64,000 nt of DNA, from positions 62,001 to 126,000 of the forward strand of contig CAMLPV010000006.1 of assembly GCA_946482005.1 (NCBI GenBank), read 5' to 3'. Below the pieces are notes generated by a model. It searched no databases. It was not told the origin of the DNA and saw nothing but the letters and a program-made list of their open reading frames with translations. A program made the translations under genes and the position numbers. The stretch is from an uncultured Gilliamella sp. GTDB lineage: Bacteria; Pseudomonadota; Gammaproteobacteria; Enterobacterales; Orbaceae. Below, piece by piece: positions 3,893 through 9,864 of the stretch (the first letter of the stretch is position 1; every line of letters starts with the position of its first letter).

Positions 3893-4345
3893 AATCTTAT
3901 TAGTTAGCAATTCAATGATGACAGCTGATTCCGTATTAACCATATTTTTCATAAAAATCTTCATAAACAAATAACAGCGCAACCATTCAACCGTAAAAAC
4001 AAAATCCACATAACCAAAAAATATCATTTTGTTTTAATTTATTCTTAAAAAATGAGAGTTAATAATCATCAAAGCTACCAAATACATACAATAAGATGAT
4101 TAGATTGTTTGGTGGCAATAAATTGACGTTTTATTCAGGTTATTTATAAGGAATAATGATCTTTGTCAGGTAAAATAATAAAAAATAGACATAGAACTAC
4201 AAAATTACGCTAATTTAATCAATACAGTTTATATTTGCGTTATAAATAGTTAATTGAAAATATAATTAACATTGATATGATAATTAATCGATTAGCTTAT
4301 ATGTTAGGAAATATTCTTTGAGTTTAAATTTTAAAAGAAGTTTTT

Positions 4346-4698
4346 ATGAGTATCGAGCAAATGCGCCATTATCAAGAAAAATTATCTTTTGAATTAGACT
4401 CAACAGATTTATGCACGTCCATCATAAAGCAAGGAAATATAACCATCATTGATGCTCGAATAAAAAGGGAAATATATCAGGAGCGGTAAATTTATGGCAT
4501 AAAGATATGTTATTTCATACAACCGAGCATTTAGATAAAAATAAAATTTATATTTATTATTGTGACGGTATTGGCTGTAATGCCTCAACTAAAGCTGTGA
4601 TTAAACTTTTAATGCTAGGATTTAAAGTAAAAGATCTAATAGGCGGTCTTGATTGGTGTAAACGAGATGGTTATACAACAGAAGGGGACGAATCTTAA
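4346..4698 (+). pseudogene. Rhodanese-like domain protein, frameshifted
   Basis: ATG at 4346 opens MSIEQMRHYQEKLSFELDSTDLCTSIIKQGNITIIDARIKRE..., which stops early; another frame continues with GNISGAVNLWHKDMLFHTTEHLDKNKIYIYYCDGIGCNASTKAVIKLLMLGFKVKDLIGGLDWCKRDGY (rhodanese active-site-like loop CDGIGCNAS). Confidence 0.75.
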
Positions 4699-4924
4699 AG
4701 CGGTCTTGAAATCAATTGTGGCTGTTAAATGTAAATTTACACAGTGGATATAATTATAGCAAAATATCTAAATTTTATTATTGTTGAAGCAAAAATTGTG
4801 GGGTGAACTGTTGCTATTATGGTAAGAAGTAGTGATTAAGTTACGTTAATGGAACTATCTGAATTTGAGATTAAACTATTCAATCATCTATCATAACCAG
4901 TAGGGGTATTATAAGGGACATAAG

Positions 4925-7900
4925 ATGGCTTTAGAAGCAGGTGGCTATGCTGAAAAATTTGGTAATAGATATGAAGCTAATTGGGTTGCCTACCAATTAC
5001 TTCGTCTACTTGAAGAAAAGATCACATGGATTGTCGTCGAACCTATTGGGGATGATGAAGTTGGTGTTGATGTAATAATTGGTATCGATCAAGATTATAC
5101 AGAGCATCATCAATGTAAAGTTGGTGTAGGTAATAATGAGCATTGGACATTATCTCAACTCAATGAATCCAAAATTTTTCGCAATGCTTTACGTCAAATT
5201 GAACGTGGAGTTACCGAGTTTCATCTTGTATCACCCTTACCCAGTAAAAAAATGAGTGATCTCAGCGATAGTGCACTTAATAGCAACATGAACCCTAATG
5301 ATTTTATGGAAAACCAAATTAAGGTTAGCCAAGAACGCGATAAAGATTTTACTGCTATTTGTAATTATTTGGGATTAAATATTACTGACCAATCAGATAT
5401 AAAAAGAGCCATTTACTTTCTTCAAAAATTCAAAGTTACCCCCTATATTATTAATCGTTATACCCAAAGTGAGCTTGAAGATAAGGCTTCTGCATTATTT
5501 TCAGATGAGCCAGTAAAACTATTAAGTTTTCTTAAAAATTATCCAGTAGAGTTTAATAAACTAAGGAAGAAAATAACATTATCTGAGTTATTGACCGATT
5601 TAAAAACAAGTGGTTTTGAACAAAGAATTGTACCAGATGACCACAGAATATCGACTGTGCTAGATACGCTTTCCACAGAGTTTGAAGAGTCAATCAAACC
5701 GTTCCTCATTTCCAATACATTAATTCCGCGGAATGAACTAAACGCTATTATTAATTCAATTCAAGATAACGCAGTAACCTTAATTAAAGCCGAGGCAGGA
5801 ACAGGAAAAAGTGCTTTACTTTTGGAGTTGCATAACCATTTAAAAGCCAACAATATAATTTCGGTTCCTATTAGATTAGATAGAAGACATCCTCAAGATA
5901 ATTCAAAAGAATTTGGAAGGTCTCTAGGGTTTCCTTATTCTCCTGTACATAGTTTAATTAAATTTACATCACAACAAAAAGTTGTGTTTATTCTTGATCA
6001 ACTCGATGCCATAAGATGGACTGCATCACATTCAAGTAATGCATTAGATATTTGCAGAGAAATAGTTCGGCAAATTATTAGGTTAAGAAAAGAAGGGAAA
6101 GATATCTGTATTGTTCTAGCATCAAGAGAATTTGACTTAAATGAAGATATTGCCTTATCTAGTTGGCTACAAAGCATTAACGATAATCGTTTAGATATCA
6201 CATTATCTTCTTTAGATGAAGACACAATAACCCTTTTAGTTAAACCATATGAAACTTATTCTTCTTTAGCAAAGGAAAAAAAAGAGATACTTAAAATTCC
6301 TTTATGGTTAGGCATCTACTTATCTATTGCACAACGCACCCAAACAGCTCCTCAATTTAATAATAAATTAGAACTAGTAAGAACGTTCTGGGAAGATAGA
6401 CTAAAACAAATTACCGATTGTAAGGTAACAGAGCAAGAGGCAGCCATTTTTATTGATCATATTGTGACATTGATGATTAATCAATCACAACTATCAATTT
6501 CTGAAAGTGCACTACAAATAGGGACCAAAAAACAGCTAGAGGCACTAATTTCTGTTGGGGTACTCAGTAAACAAAACCAAAGAATCAGCTTTCGGCATCA
6601 AGCTTTATTTGATTATCTAGTGGGCACCAAACTTTTTAAAGCAGGTAGTGAATCACCAGAAAAACTCTTATTTGAAATTGGTCCTTATGAAACACAAACC
6701 TTAGCCAAAAGAGAGCATCTCAAATATGCGCTAAATATACTATTGGATTCAGGGCAAGATCTCTTTTGTAACTGCGTTGAGGCAATCTTATTTAATGATA
6801 ATATTAGATTCCATCTAAAATACTTAGTTTTAAACTCAATTAAAGAAATCAAAGATATTAAAAAACCTGCAAAATCACTCATTGATAAAATCATCGAGTC
6901 CCAAGCGCTTTGTAAAAAGTTTTTAATGATAAGTTGTGACTCAAATAGGGCTATTATTCACTATTTAAGTGAAAATCAGTATATTTCAAAATGGCTACAC
7001 AGTAGCAATGATAGTCTAATTGATCTAGCTATTAGCTTACTCAGATCCATAGCGACAAATGAATCAGAATTAATTATCAAAGAGCTATCTGACTTCGTTG
7101 GTCAATCAGAACTATGGAATCTAAGGGTATATTATGCACTACCTTTGAAAATAAAAGATGATACCGATGATATTTTTGAGCTTCGAAAGAGATTACTTAA
7201 TTTAGGTGGTACGGTATATTTAATTATTTGGAAGTCTCTTAGCAAAACCCATCCATTACGAGTACTATCTTTAATTGAATCAATATTAGAGCAGTATAGA
7301 AACGTTATCTGCGAATCTCCATACTCATCAAGTAAAAAAAACATTGACAAGATAGCTAATTGGTATCGTTGGCGTGATTATGAACTTAAAGATATTAAAC
7401 AATTAGCTACAGCGATTCCCACAGAAACTATTAAGCTTTTGTTAAAATATATAGACCGTGTTTTTAACTCAGAACAAGATAAATACGCTATTCATGAATG
7501 GTTTTATCGATATTGGTATAGCAACTATCAAGATGTAAGTAGTATTCAACATGGGCTATTTACCCTCATTGAGTTGGCAGGCCAACAGCTAAAAGCCGAT
7601 CCAGACATATTGTTAAGCATTATTGCACCTTATATGCAAAAATCAAATGCTGTGATAACACATTTGATTGCAACACTTTTATTAAATTTATCAAATCAAC
7701 ATGCCGATCAGGTCATTAACTGGCTATTGGCTGCTCCTAAAACACGTTTAGCCTGTGGCAATAAGTATATTGAACCTGCTTGGATTTTATCAGGAAAACT
7801 TATCACTAAATTCTCCCCGCATTGTTCAGATGCGTTATTTTGGCAACTGGAGAAAATAATTTATTTTTTCCCACCCTTAATAGATATTGAACAGATAAAG

Positions 7901-9595
7901 AGAGATTTAGAAGCGAGAAGAAAAAACGAATATTATAGTTATTGGGGTGAACCCCAACATTTTTTATTACCGACATTGGATCAGCAGCGCATATCGTGTA
8001 AATCAAAAAATTTAATTCCAGTACTAGAGCGCAAATTTAATTTATATTCTAACTCTGATTTCTATCAGGCGGATAACAGTTTTGGAGGAAATGTCATCTC
8101 GCCCTTACGTGGAAAAAATAAACTCTCTAATAAAGCATGGCGCAACTTAATATTAACACCAGCATCTGCATTTACCCCTCGTAAGTTGACTCAAATAGAT
8201 AATGATACTGCTTCAAGAGCAGATATTAAGCAATTTGCTCGTGATTTGCAGTCAAGTGTAAAAAACGAGCCAATTCGTTTTGCTCAATTAGCGCTTTCAC
8301 TCCCTCAGAACATTCATACAGAATATATTGATGCTTTCTTCTATGGCTTAGCAGAATCTAATGACATACCAGCTAGTGATAATTATAAAGAGCAAAGGGA
8401 AACTTGTCCTACTGAATTAATAGAGCAAGTGATTCTTCATTTTAATAAGGAGGCTTGCGAAGATTCGTTAGCTAGCTTATTAGCAAGCAGAGCTGATAAC
8501 TGGTCTAAGAAGATCATTGATATATTAATAAACCTTGCAAAATATTCAACTAACCCTGAATCAAATCAATTAACTGTTTGGGACACCAAAAAAGGGAAGT
8601 CAACAGATTGTGCAGATGCTAAATCATTGCTTGAAACAACGATTAATAGTATTCGAGGCAAAGCTTATCGAGGCATTTCTGACATTTTTTGGCGTAACCA
8701 GACATTTGCATTGGAAAACCTTGAACTAGTCGATTGTGCAATTAATGATGAGCACCCTTCCGTTAAAATGGCTGCCTTTTTTCTTTTAACACCACTACTT
8801 AATTATCAAAATGATTATGCGCATGAAAAATTTATTGAATTGTGTCATAAAGATTTACGTATGACGTGTGGAAATTATGCTTATCATTTTTTTAATCAAG
8901 GTTTTGAAGGAAAATATCAACAACAATATATAGCTTTAACCCTATCAATGCTAGCGTCAACCAACGATGAAATAAAAAAACAAGCCGCAATACAAATATA
9001 CGCACGTTGGTTTTTTAATGGTTTATTTGAGGAACAACTTAACGCGGTGCTTCAAGGGGATAATATTTTAAAAGAGGGGTGCGTATCTGTTATTAGTCAG
9101 TTGCTTCGTGAGGATAAATATAACGATAAGATAGATAAAATAGAACATGCCTATCAGTTATTAATTAATGATGATGATAAAGAAATAGTAAGGAAACTAG
9201 GAACATGTGTTATGTATAAAAACTATTGGTTAAAACCTAACGTTGATAAATTATTCAGCCTATTTGTCGTGTCAAAGGCGGCTGTGCATTGTTTATCGGA
9301 ACTATTTGAGTCATTGGAAGAATATCCTGGAAATTTATCCAATTTAAGCGATCCTATTTTACAATTAGTAGAAAATATTACGGGTAATTATAATGAAAAT
9401 AATCAACCATCAAGAATAGGTCGTCTAGAATTAAGTCTACTTGCTGTTCTTCAAAGACTTTATGATGAAGCCACAGAGGATATGGATAAAGAGGCTATTA
9501 ATACCTGTTTAGATATATGGGATAAATTACTACAATCTGATATTTATTCAGCTATGGAAGCAATAGATCGATTAGATGGCGGTCTACTTAGTTAA
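4925..9595 (+). CDS. Large NTPase with N-terminal PD-(D/E)XK/Cap4-like nuclease motif; candidate Avs/STAND-type anti-phage protein
   Basis: 1556 aa; N-term E17...GVD49...Q63CK65 nuclease-like motif; Walker A AGTGKS (about aa 291-296) and Walker B VVFILDQLD (about aa 353-361); long helical C-terminal region. Confidence 0.75.
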   Translation: MALEAGGYAEKFGNRYEANWVAYQLLRLLEEKITWIVVEPIGDDEVGVDVIIGIDQDYTEHHQCKVGVGNNEHWTLSQLNESKIFRNALRQIERGVTEFHLVSPLPSKKMSDLSDSALNSNMNPNDFMENQIKVSQERDKDFTAICNYLGLNITDQSDIKRAIYFLQKFKVTPYIINRYTQSELEDKASALFSDEPVKLLSFLKNYPVEFNKLRKKITLSELLTDLKTSGFEQRIVPDDHRISTVLDTLSTEFEESIKPFLISNTLIPRNELNAIINSIQDNAVTLIKAEAGTGKSALLLELHNHLKANNIISVPIRLDRRHPQDNSKEFGRSLGFPYSPVHSLIKFTSQQKVVFILDQLDAIRWTASHSSNALDICREIVRQIIRLRKEGKDICIVLASREFDLNEDIALSSWLQSINDNRLDITLSSLDEDTITLLVKPYETYSSLAKEKKEILKIPLWLGIYLSIAQRTQTAPQFNNKLELVRTFWEDRLKQITDCKVTEQEAAIFIDHIVTLMINQSQLSISESALQIGTKKQLEALISVGVLSKQNQRISFRHQALFDYLVGTKLFKAGSESPEKLLFEIGPYETQTLAKREHLKYALNILLDSGQDLFCNCVEAILFNDNIRFHLKYLVLNSIKEIKDIKKPAKSLIDKIIESQALCKKFLMISCDSNRAIIHYLSENQYISKWLHSSNDSLIDLAISLLRSIATNESELIIKELSDFVGQSELWNLRVYYALPLKIKDDTDDIFELRKRLLNLGGTVYLIIWKSLSKTHPLRVLSLIESILEQYRNVICESPYSSSKKNIDKIANWYRWRDYELKDIKQLATAIPTETIKLLLKYIDRVFNSEQDKYAIHEWFYRYWYSNYQDVSSIQHGLFTLIELAGQQLKADPDILLSIIAPYMQKSNAVITHLIATLLLNLSNQHADQVINWLLAAPKTRLACGNKYIEPAWILSGKLITKFSPHCSDALFWQLEKIIYFFPPLIDIEQIKRDLEARRKNEYYSYWGEPQHFLLPTLDQQRISCKSKNLIPVLERKFNLYSNSDFYQADNSFGGNVISPLRGKNKLSNKAWRNLILTPASAFTPRKLTQIDNDTASRADIKQFARDLQSSVKNEPIRFAQLALSLPQNIHTEYIDAFFYGLAESNDIPASDNYKEQRETCPTELIEQVILHFNKEACEDSLASLLASRADNWSKKIIDILINLAKYSTNPESNQLTVWDTKKGKSTDCADAKSLLETTINSIRGKAYRGISDIFWRNQTFALENLELVDCAINDEHPSVKMAAFFLLTPLLNYQNDYAHEKFIELCHKDLRMTCGNYAYHFFNQGFEGKYQQQYIALTLSMLASTNDEIKKQAAIQIYARWFFNGLFEEQLNAVLQGDNILKEGCVSVISQLLREDKYNDKIDKIEHAYQLLINDDDKEIVRKLGTCVMYKNYWLKPNVDKLFSLFVVSKAAVHCLSELFESLEEYPGNLSNLSDPILQLVENITGNYNENNQPSRIGRLELSLLAVLQRLYDEATEDMDKEAINTCLDIWDKLLQSDIYSAMEAIDRLDGGLLS

Positions 9596-9683
9596 AGGTG
9601 AATCAACTTTACTTATGATTATAGCTTAGACTTCTACTACTCATTTCCTATGTATATTACGAGTGGTACTGGATATTATAAAT

Positions 9684-9759
9684 TGGAGCGGGAAACGAGG
9701 TTCGAACTCGCGACCTCAACCTTGGCAAGGTTGCGCTCTACCAACTGAGCTATTCCCGC
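9684..9759 (-). tRNA. tRNA-Gly(GCC)
   Basis: Reverse complement GCGGGAATAGCTCAGTTGGTAGAGCGCAACCTTGCCAAGGTTGAGGTCGCGAGTTCGAACCTCGTTTCCCGCTCCA folds as a cloverleaf, anticodon GCC, encoded CCA. Confidence 0.97.
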
Positions 9760-9776: not shown

Positions 9777-9864
9777 TGGTGCCCGGGGCGAGACTTGAAC
9801 TCGCACGGCCAAAAAGGCCGAGGGATTTTAAATCCCTTGTGTCTACCGATTTCACCACCCGGGC
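9777..9864 (-). tRNA. tRNA-Leu(TAA)
   Basis: Reverse complement GCCCGGGTGGTGAAATCGGTAGACACAAGGGATTTAAAATCCCTCGGCC...GGGCACCA; long variable arm, anticodon TAA. Confidence 0.96.

What the first reader, a model, noticed from the sequence alone, without database searches (positions are those of the whole stretch)
4925..9595. Candidate Avs-like anti-phage protein: PD-(D/E)XK-type nuclease motif fused to a STAND-like NTPase and a >1000-aa sensor-like C-terminus
Seen: 1556-aa single ORF; N-terminus MALEAGGYAEKFGNRYEANW...PIGDDEVGVDVIIG...HHQCKVG carries E17, D49 and Q63-x-K65 in PD-(D/E)XK order; Walker A AEAGTGKSALL and Walker B VVFILDQLD follow; the rest is helical and repeat-like with no obvious enzymatic motif. 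Established: Avs (antiviral STAND) proteins have an N-terminal effector (often Cap4/DUF4297 or Mrr-type nuclease), a central STAND NTPase and a C-terminal phage-protein sensor, at similar lengths. Inference: a stand-alone phage-sensing nuclease, possibly a divergent Avs subtype, placed beside tRNA genes.
Basis: partly seen in the sequence, partly recalled or inferred. Interest (0 to 1): 0.75.

Follow-up and report, generated by a model that had tools for sequence, protein, structure and literature searches.

The report
Phage-sensing nuclease receptor in bee symbiont
The gene encodes a large one-protein bacterial immune receptor, built like animal NLRs and bacterial Avs proteins (DNA-cutting front, ATP-driven switch, long sensing tail), carried on an accessory insert in a bee-gut Gilliamella and belonging to a widespread family for which I found no published test.

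Summary
Bases 4925-9595 encode an intact 1556-aa protein: a predicted PD-(D/E)XK nuclease (pLDDT 90; E17, D49, Q63-x-K65), a STAND/NACHT NTPase (invariant GxGK and DQLD), then about 980 residues of HEAT-like solenoid. The front half's best structural matches are Avs3, Avs4, NLRC4, NLRP9 and Avs5. Sixty-nine near-full-length homologues from about 14 phyla keep the architecture. No PADLOC Avs model matches it; the unvalidated candidate PDC-M54A does, partially. A distant relative is solved (PDB 9n00, 'AAA family ATPase'), but I found no paper. In Gilliamella the gene is accessory: the closest relative has an empty site ending at the 3' end of tRNA-Gly, and the protein is more like Providencia's (75%) than core proteins are (60-64%). 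Homologues neighbour restriction-modification and PD-Lambda-4 genes. A 58% paralogue in the same genome shows exchanged solenoid segments between orthologues (53-61% divergent at residues 781-900, 0-3% in the NTPase). Most likely it is an Avs-like abortive-infection receptor of a divergent family outside Avs1-5. Trigger and defence activity are untested.

The parts
4925..9595 (+). Single-gene STAND nuclease, 1556 aa, intact
   Evidence: full-length alignment with homologues
4913..4918 (+). Shine-Dalgarno-like AAGGGA
   Evidence: read directly from sequence
4925..5494 (+). N-terminal PD-(D/E)XK (Cap4/DUF4297-type) nuclease domain, residues 1 to about 190; E17, E39, D49, Q63, K65
   Evidence: model with alpha-beta-beta-beta-alpha-beta order; conservation; Cap4_nuclease weak but recurrent
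5708..6244 (+). STAND/NACHT NTPase core, residues about 262-440
   Evidence: nSTAND3, AAA_16, nSTAND5, NACHT all below gathering cut-off; Foldseek Avs3/Avs4/NLRC4
5789..5812 (+). Walker A, residues 289-296 (AEAGTGKS)
   Evidence: GxGK invariant in 69 homologues
5978..6007 (+). Walker B VVFILDQLD region, residues 352-361
   Evidence: D358, Q359, D361 invariant
6245..6649 (+). Helical and winged-helix-like region, residues about 441-575, with invariant H558 and D563
   Evidence: model; nSTAND_NTPase4 weak at 529-566; PDC-M54A at 478-573
6650..9592 (+). C-terminal HEAT-like alpha solenoid, presumed sensor, residues about 576-1556
   Evidence: model pLDDT 87.5; Foldseek importin-beta/Kap123/CAND1 class
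7085..7804 (+). Segment (residues 721-960) aligned with the exchanged, hypervariable part of the sibling-locus orthologues; core 781-900 at 7265-7624; candidate recognition surface
   Evidence: measured in L002/L003/L004, not in the window copy itself
3910..9680 (.). Interval absent from G. apicola ESL0177 (G032), which has 357 bp of unrelated sequence there; accessory insertion
9684..9759 (-). tRNA-Gly(gcc); shared synteny resumes at its 3' end
9777..9864 (-). tRNA-Leu(taa)

Best explanation
The gene is a stand-alone innate immune receptor of the Avs/NLR type. In the resting cell it is probably autoinhibited (inferred). The HEAT-like solenoid binds a protein made by an infecting phage (inferred; ligand unknown). 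Binding lets the STAND NTPase bind ATP and oligomerise (inferred from the NTPase class). Oligomerisation brings the N-terminal Cap4-like PD-(D/E)XK domains together so that they cut double-stranded DNA, destroying phage and host DNA and ending the infection by cell death (inferred). Shown here: the three-part architecture (by confident prediction), conserved catalytic and Walker residues, structural match to Avs3/Avs4/NLRs, accessory and horizontally moved status, defence-gene neighbours of homologues, and concentrated divergence in the solenoid between orthologues.
For: Confident AF2 models of both halves. Foldseek: Avs3 8dgc E 3.8e-14, Avs4 8dgf E 3.1e-12, NLRC4 2.7e-10, Avs5 9jap 3.2e-8. 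Invariant NTPase and >=93% E17/Q63/K65 conservation in 69 homologues. PDC-M54A hit in 56 of 61 family members. The distant homologue 9n00 carries an LmuA (Cap4-type) nuclease N-terminus. Neighbours of homologues include PD-Lambda-4, SoFic, type I/II/IIG/IV restriction-modification and integrases, against two PADLOC models among 41 window ORFs. Patchy distribution: 3 of 35 Gilliamella, 4 of 296 in the order. Transfer: 75% identity to Providencia rettgeri against 60% UvrC and 64% PheT. Empty site at tRNA-Gly. A different effector (caspase) joined to a related NTPase in Nostoc/Tolypothrix. Sensor-segment exchange with high dN.
Against: No experiment. Pfam Cap4 and STAND hits are below the curated cut-offs, and a profile-profile test against three Cap4 domains was inconclusive (probability 5%, template Neff 2.1). 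No Avs1-5 model matches the protein. The solenoid resembles no solved Avs sensor among the top 50 hits. The defence-neighbour control is small and counts models, not proteins. Ligand and oligomeric state are unknown.
Confidence: 0.83

Rival explanations
1. The same receptor architecture, but the trigger is foreign DNA, plasmid conjugation or DNA damage rather than a phage protein, so that it is mainly an anti-plasmid or anti-mobile-element nuclease.
For: HEAT-like solenoids can bind many partners including nucleic acids (fold class). The ligand is unknown. Homologues on plasmids show the gene itself travels on such elements, which neither supports nor excludes this.
Against: The closest structural relatives with known ligands (Avs3, Avs4) bind phage proteins, and defence-type neighbours are common.
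Confidence: 0.12
2. A selfish stabilising or inter-element exclusion module of the integrated element: the nuclease kills cells when the element is lost or a competitor arrives.
For: It lies in a tRNA-abutting insertion, and the Providencia homologue sits directly beside a tyrosine integrase.
Against: No antitoxin-like partner recurs among neighbours; the size and conserved sensor architecture suit recognition, and the distribution spans many phyla and contexts.
Confidence: 0.04
3. A housekeeping AAA ATPase with a degenerate nuclease domain.
For: The D49 position is only 72% conserved.
Against: No full gene in 32 of 35 congeners; K65, Q63 and E17 conserved at >=93%; horizontally acquired.
Confidence: 0.01

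Closest known systems
PDB 9n00/9n01/9yix, 'AAA family ATPase', 1523 aa
   Same: Homologous in sequence over the nuclease, NTPase and winged-helix region (profile E 2.8e-50, residues 8-668) and part of the C-terminal solenoid (E 1.6e-10). N-terminus matches LmuA.
   Different: Low identity; a different subfamily, closer to the Nostoc proteins. No paper found in the library, so its function and naming are not known to me.
PADLOC candidate PDC-M54A
   Same: Profile hit in 56 of 61 members; similar length (1621 positions).
   Different: Only partial coverage in this protein (478-573 best stretch). Defined as a candidate only; no partner gene was seen here.
Avs3 (DUF4297/Cap4-STAND) and Avs4 (Mrr-STAND)
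   Same: Same order of parts, PD-(D/E)XK effector, best structural matches.
   Different: No Avs1-5 HMM match and no Avs3/Avs4 chain among the profile hits shown. HEAT-like solenoid where Avs sensors are TPR-like (general knowledge).
Avs5 (SIR2-STAND)
   Same: STAND core related: profile hit to 9jap at 253-314 and nSTAND3 (PMC12931631).
   Different: SIR2 NADase effector instead of a nuclease; shorter.
Animal NLRs (NLRC4, NLRP9)
   Same: NACHT-type core fold and switch layout.
   Different: Different effector domains and LRR sensor; eukaryotic.
Cap4/DUF4297 nuclease (CBASS), LmuA of Lamassu
   Same: N-terminal GxxYE...E...D...QxK...W motif pattern; weak Pfam Cap4_nuclease hits in register in 5 of 10 members.
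   Different: Those effectors are activated by cyclic oligonucleotides or by a partner protein (general knowledge); here the activating switch and sensor are fused in the same chain.

Membership tests
STAND/NACHT NTPase superfamily | P-loop NTPase with Walker A GxGK(S/T) and Walker B hhhhDxxD, NACHT-like fold followed by winged-helix region | tested here: met
   Invariant residues in 69 sequences; model and Foldseek to Avs and NLR structures; Pfam STAND/NACHT hits sub-threshold
PD-(D/E)XK nuclease, Cap4/DUF4297 type | alpha-beta-beta-beta-alpha-beta fold with E, D and (D/E/Q)xK | tested here: met
   Topology H7-29, E35-38, E50-55, E58-64, H76-92, E97-103; residue conservation
PD-(D/E)XK nuclease, Cap4/DUF4297 type | Pfam PF14130 at gathering threshold | tested here: not met
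   18.7 bits against cut-off 26.2, E 0.0021
PD-(D/E)XK nuclease, Cap4/DUF4297 type | Profile-profile similarity to Cap4 domains | tested here: inconclusive
   hhalign probability 5%, motifs roughly in register, only three template sequences
Avs (AVAST) | N-terminal effector, central STAND, C-terminal repeat sensor in one chain | tested here: met
   definition from PMC12931631
Avs (AVAST) | Sequence membership of Avs1-5 by profile | tested here: not met
   No Avs model at E<=1 for the full protein; only 6 of 61 relatives touch Avs2 and 1 touches Avs4, weakly
Avs (AVAST) | TPR-like sensor domain | tested here: not met
   HEAT/importin-like solenoid, no Avs chain in top 50
Avs (AVAST) | Activation by a phage protein and phage protection | not testable with these tools
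   needs experiment
PADLOC PDC-M54 | PDC-M54A profile match | tested here: met
   E 1.7e-15, partial coverage; 56 of 61 relatives
PADLOC PDC-M54 | Conserved partner gene, if the 'M' denotes a multi-gene system | tested here: inconclusive
   No recurrent neighbour family among the top 25 families of 131 neighbours; no adjacent intact gene in the window

The most novel reading that the evidence does not exclude
A widespread family of bacterial NLR-like receptors outside Avs1-5 uses a HEAT-like solenoid as phage sensor and changes specificity by exchanging a solenoid segment (around residues 721-960) between alleles at a fixed locus, while nuclease and NTPase stay nearly constant; one Gilliamella genome keeps two such receptors of different specificity.
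Probability: 0.35. Interest if true: 0.7.

Novelty: new variant of a known kind. Interest (0 to 1): 0.52.

Why it matters
If it works as proposed, it adds a cross-phylum nuclease-STAND family to the bacterial NLR-like receptors, one that standard Avs profiles miss, with a sensor scaffold (HEAT-like) not known to me for Avs. The natural alleles at the sibling Gilliamella locus, nearly identical in the NTPase but very different in a stretch of the solenoid, offer a ready-made way to map phage recognition by swapping segments.

Tried and rejected
PDB search with the single sequence found nothing; only the profiles reached 9n00. NCBIfam gave no match. The phage collection held no homologue. Three viral-contig scans failed because the machine gave no answer, so carriage by viruses in IMG/VR is untested. 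The first genome-contig scan with the single sequence found none; the alignment query found 230. A paper for 9n00 or PDC-M54 was sought and not found; two Avs papers looked up by DOI are not held. GiPD474 was considered as the 9n00 protein and rejected, because it is ParA-like. Cap4 profile-profile comparison was inconclusive. A direct repeat of the tRNA-Gly 3' end at the far side of the insertion was sought by exact match and not found, so integrase-made att sites are not shown. A housekeeping role was rejected on distribution.
Full report
What is there. The window contains one intact ORF at 4925-9595 (+), 1556 aa, with a plausible ribosome-binding site. The window belongs to a Gilliamella genome: the congener G032 has a contig of 1,011,596 bases holding the related gene at the place where record NZ_QGLP01000004.1, Gilliamella apicola ESL0177, of the same length, has it, and the search tool marks G032 as the same genus as G000. 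G000 is 81% complete.

Anatomy. Single-sequence searches give only sub-threshold STAND/NACHT hits at 265-566, a PADLOC candidate-defence hit, PDC-M54A, E 1.7e-15, and nothing in NCBIfam. A profile made from seven relatives found 230 encoding loci in GTDB genomes, of which 80 were kept. In a 69-sequence alignment the whole length is conserved. Walker A G292/G294/K295 and Walker B D358/Q359/D361 are invariant, as are R401, H558, D563, Q591 and R596. In the N-terminus E17 (93%), E39 (96%), Q63 (94%) and K65 (94%) are nearly invariant and D49 is 72%. AlphaFold2 on residues 1-700 (61 sequences) gives pLDDT 90 with the order helix 7-29, strands 35-38, 50-55 and 58-64, helices 76-92, strand 97-103. 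This places E17 in the first helix, D49 just before the second strand and Q63-x-K65 at the end of the third strand, as expected for PD-(D/E)XK. Foldseek ranks Avs3, Avs4, NLRC4, NLRP9 and Avs5 at the top. TM-scores are low (0.2-0.4), which I attribute to different domain placement, so E-values, not TM, carry this match. Residues 640-1556 are predicted (pLDDT 87.5) as a nearly all-helical solenoid with a small beta insertion that matches importins, CAND1 and similar HEAT-repeat proteins.

Nuclease type. PF14130 (Cap4_nuclease) is the only Pfam family that recurs among ten N-termini, always starting at residue 5 or 6, but below its cut-off. The distant homologue 9n00 has an N-terminus that matches LmuA, E 8e-8. 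A profile-profile test against three Cap4 domains was inconclusive. Cap4-type is therefore the best reading, not proven.

Relatives. The only full-length relative in the PDB is 9n00 (also 9n01, 9yix), deposited as 'AAA family ATPase', E 2.8e-50 over residues 8-668 and 1.6e-10 over the solenoid. I found no paper and it does not appear in the fold-library results. Related NTPase cores occur with other front ends: a caspase domain in Nostoc/Tolypothrix plasmid proteins, and in Segatella a NACHT protein with its NTPase close to the N-terminus. This is the modular behaviour of STAND receptors, although those proteins are distant (about 25% over residues 262-657).

Surroundings and mobility. Only 3 of 35 Gilliamella genomes have a full gene, and one has a 39-residue remnant. 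In the order, 4 of 296 sampled genomes match. The G. apicola relative with 94-96% identical flanks shares the neighbourhood up to window base 3909 and again from 9681, with 357 bp between instead of 5.8 kb. The right boundary is the 3' end of tRNA-Gly. Another congener has two integrase-like ORF pieces at the same tRNA (L124:17374-18354; identified by eye). No direct repeat was found at the left side, so the insertion mechanism is open. The protein is 75% identical to one in Providencia rettgeri, while UvrC and PheT of the two species are 60% and 64% identical, and in the tree the window copy groups with Providencia, apart from the other Gilliamella copies. That indicates horizontal transfer. 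In Providencia the gene lies between PD-Lambda-4 ORFs and a tyrosine integrase; in Motilimonas it is near what look like type III restriction-modification genes and several recombinases (by eye; PD-Lambda-4). Across 131 nearest neighbours, 173 PADLOC models match at E<=1e-20, including type I, II, IIG and IV restriction-modification and SoFic, against 2 models among 41 ORFs of this window. These are model counts and many models are redundant, so this is supportive rather than a formal enrichment test.

Second copy and diversification. The same genome has a 58% identical full-length paralogue on contig 17, at a locus where G032 also carries it. Between L002 (own) and L003 (G032) the NTPase region (241-660) differs by 0-3%, but residues 781-900 differ by 53-61%, with 721-960 and 1141-1260 also raised. 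In 781-900 dS is 0.51-0.62 and dN 0.41-0.47, whereas in the NTPase both are near zero. Raised dS suggests that the segment was exchanged by recombination; the high dN relative to dS suggests relaxed or diversifying selection there. L003 against L004 shows other raised segments (961-1020, 1441-1556). With three alleles this is suggestive, and it was not measured in the window copy, whose comparison with Providencia shows only mild peaks in the same stretch.

Mechanism. Most likely: recognition of a phage product by the solenoid, ATP-dependent oligomerisation, activation of paired nuclease domains, degradation of DNA and abortive infection. The steps after architecture are inferred from Avs1-5 and NLR biology (PMC12931631; 8dgc and 8dgf entries).

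Verdict. It works like an Avs by every feature that could be computed, but it is not a sequence member of Avs1-5: new variant of a known kind. The strongest open points are the trigger, the identity of 9n00, and whether sensor exchange changes phage range.

Noticed in passing
L002 (G000:C17:20003-24628): Second full-length family member, 58% identical, in the same genome, at a locus shared with G. apicola ESL0177 (L003).
   Followed up: yes
window 4346-4698: What reads as a broken rhodanese-like gene (two frames) just upstream of the nuclease gene; judged by eye only.
   Followed up: no
L124:17374-18354: Two integrase-like ORF pieces next to the same tRNA-Gly in a congener (G030), suggesting that the tRNA is an insertion hotspot.
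   Followed up: partly
L006 (G015:C30:33952-34068): 39-residue C-terminal remnant with a stop, about 10 kb from the same tRNA-Gly/pgsA junction in G015; possible relic of a lost copy.
   Followed up: partly
L012:3763-7619: PD-Lambda-4_A in Providencia rettgeri RB151 is split into two ORFs beside the homologue; either broken or a natural split.
   Followed up: partly
L010:4744-9771: Cyanobacterial plasmid protein with a caspase-like front end fused to a related STAND core.
   Followed up: partly
L011:1-10993: Segatella plasmid locus: related NACHT protein between a DUF2971 gene and an unknown gene, close to an annotated AAA ATPase plus UvrD-like pair (Gabija-like by annotation only).
   Followed up: no
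L015:4-6537: Open frame of 2177 aa directly upstream of the Snodgrassella homologue, not identified.
   Followed up: no
L017:8001-12663, L037:7971-12676, L074:8001-12618, L084:7932-13868: Homologues interrupted into two or more frames, so gene decay (or assembly error) is not rare in the family.
   Followed up: no
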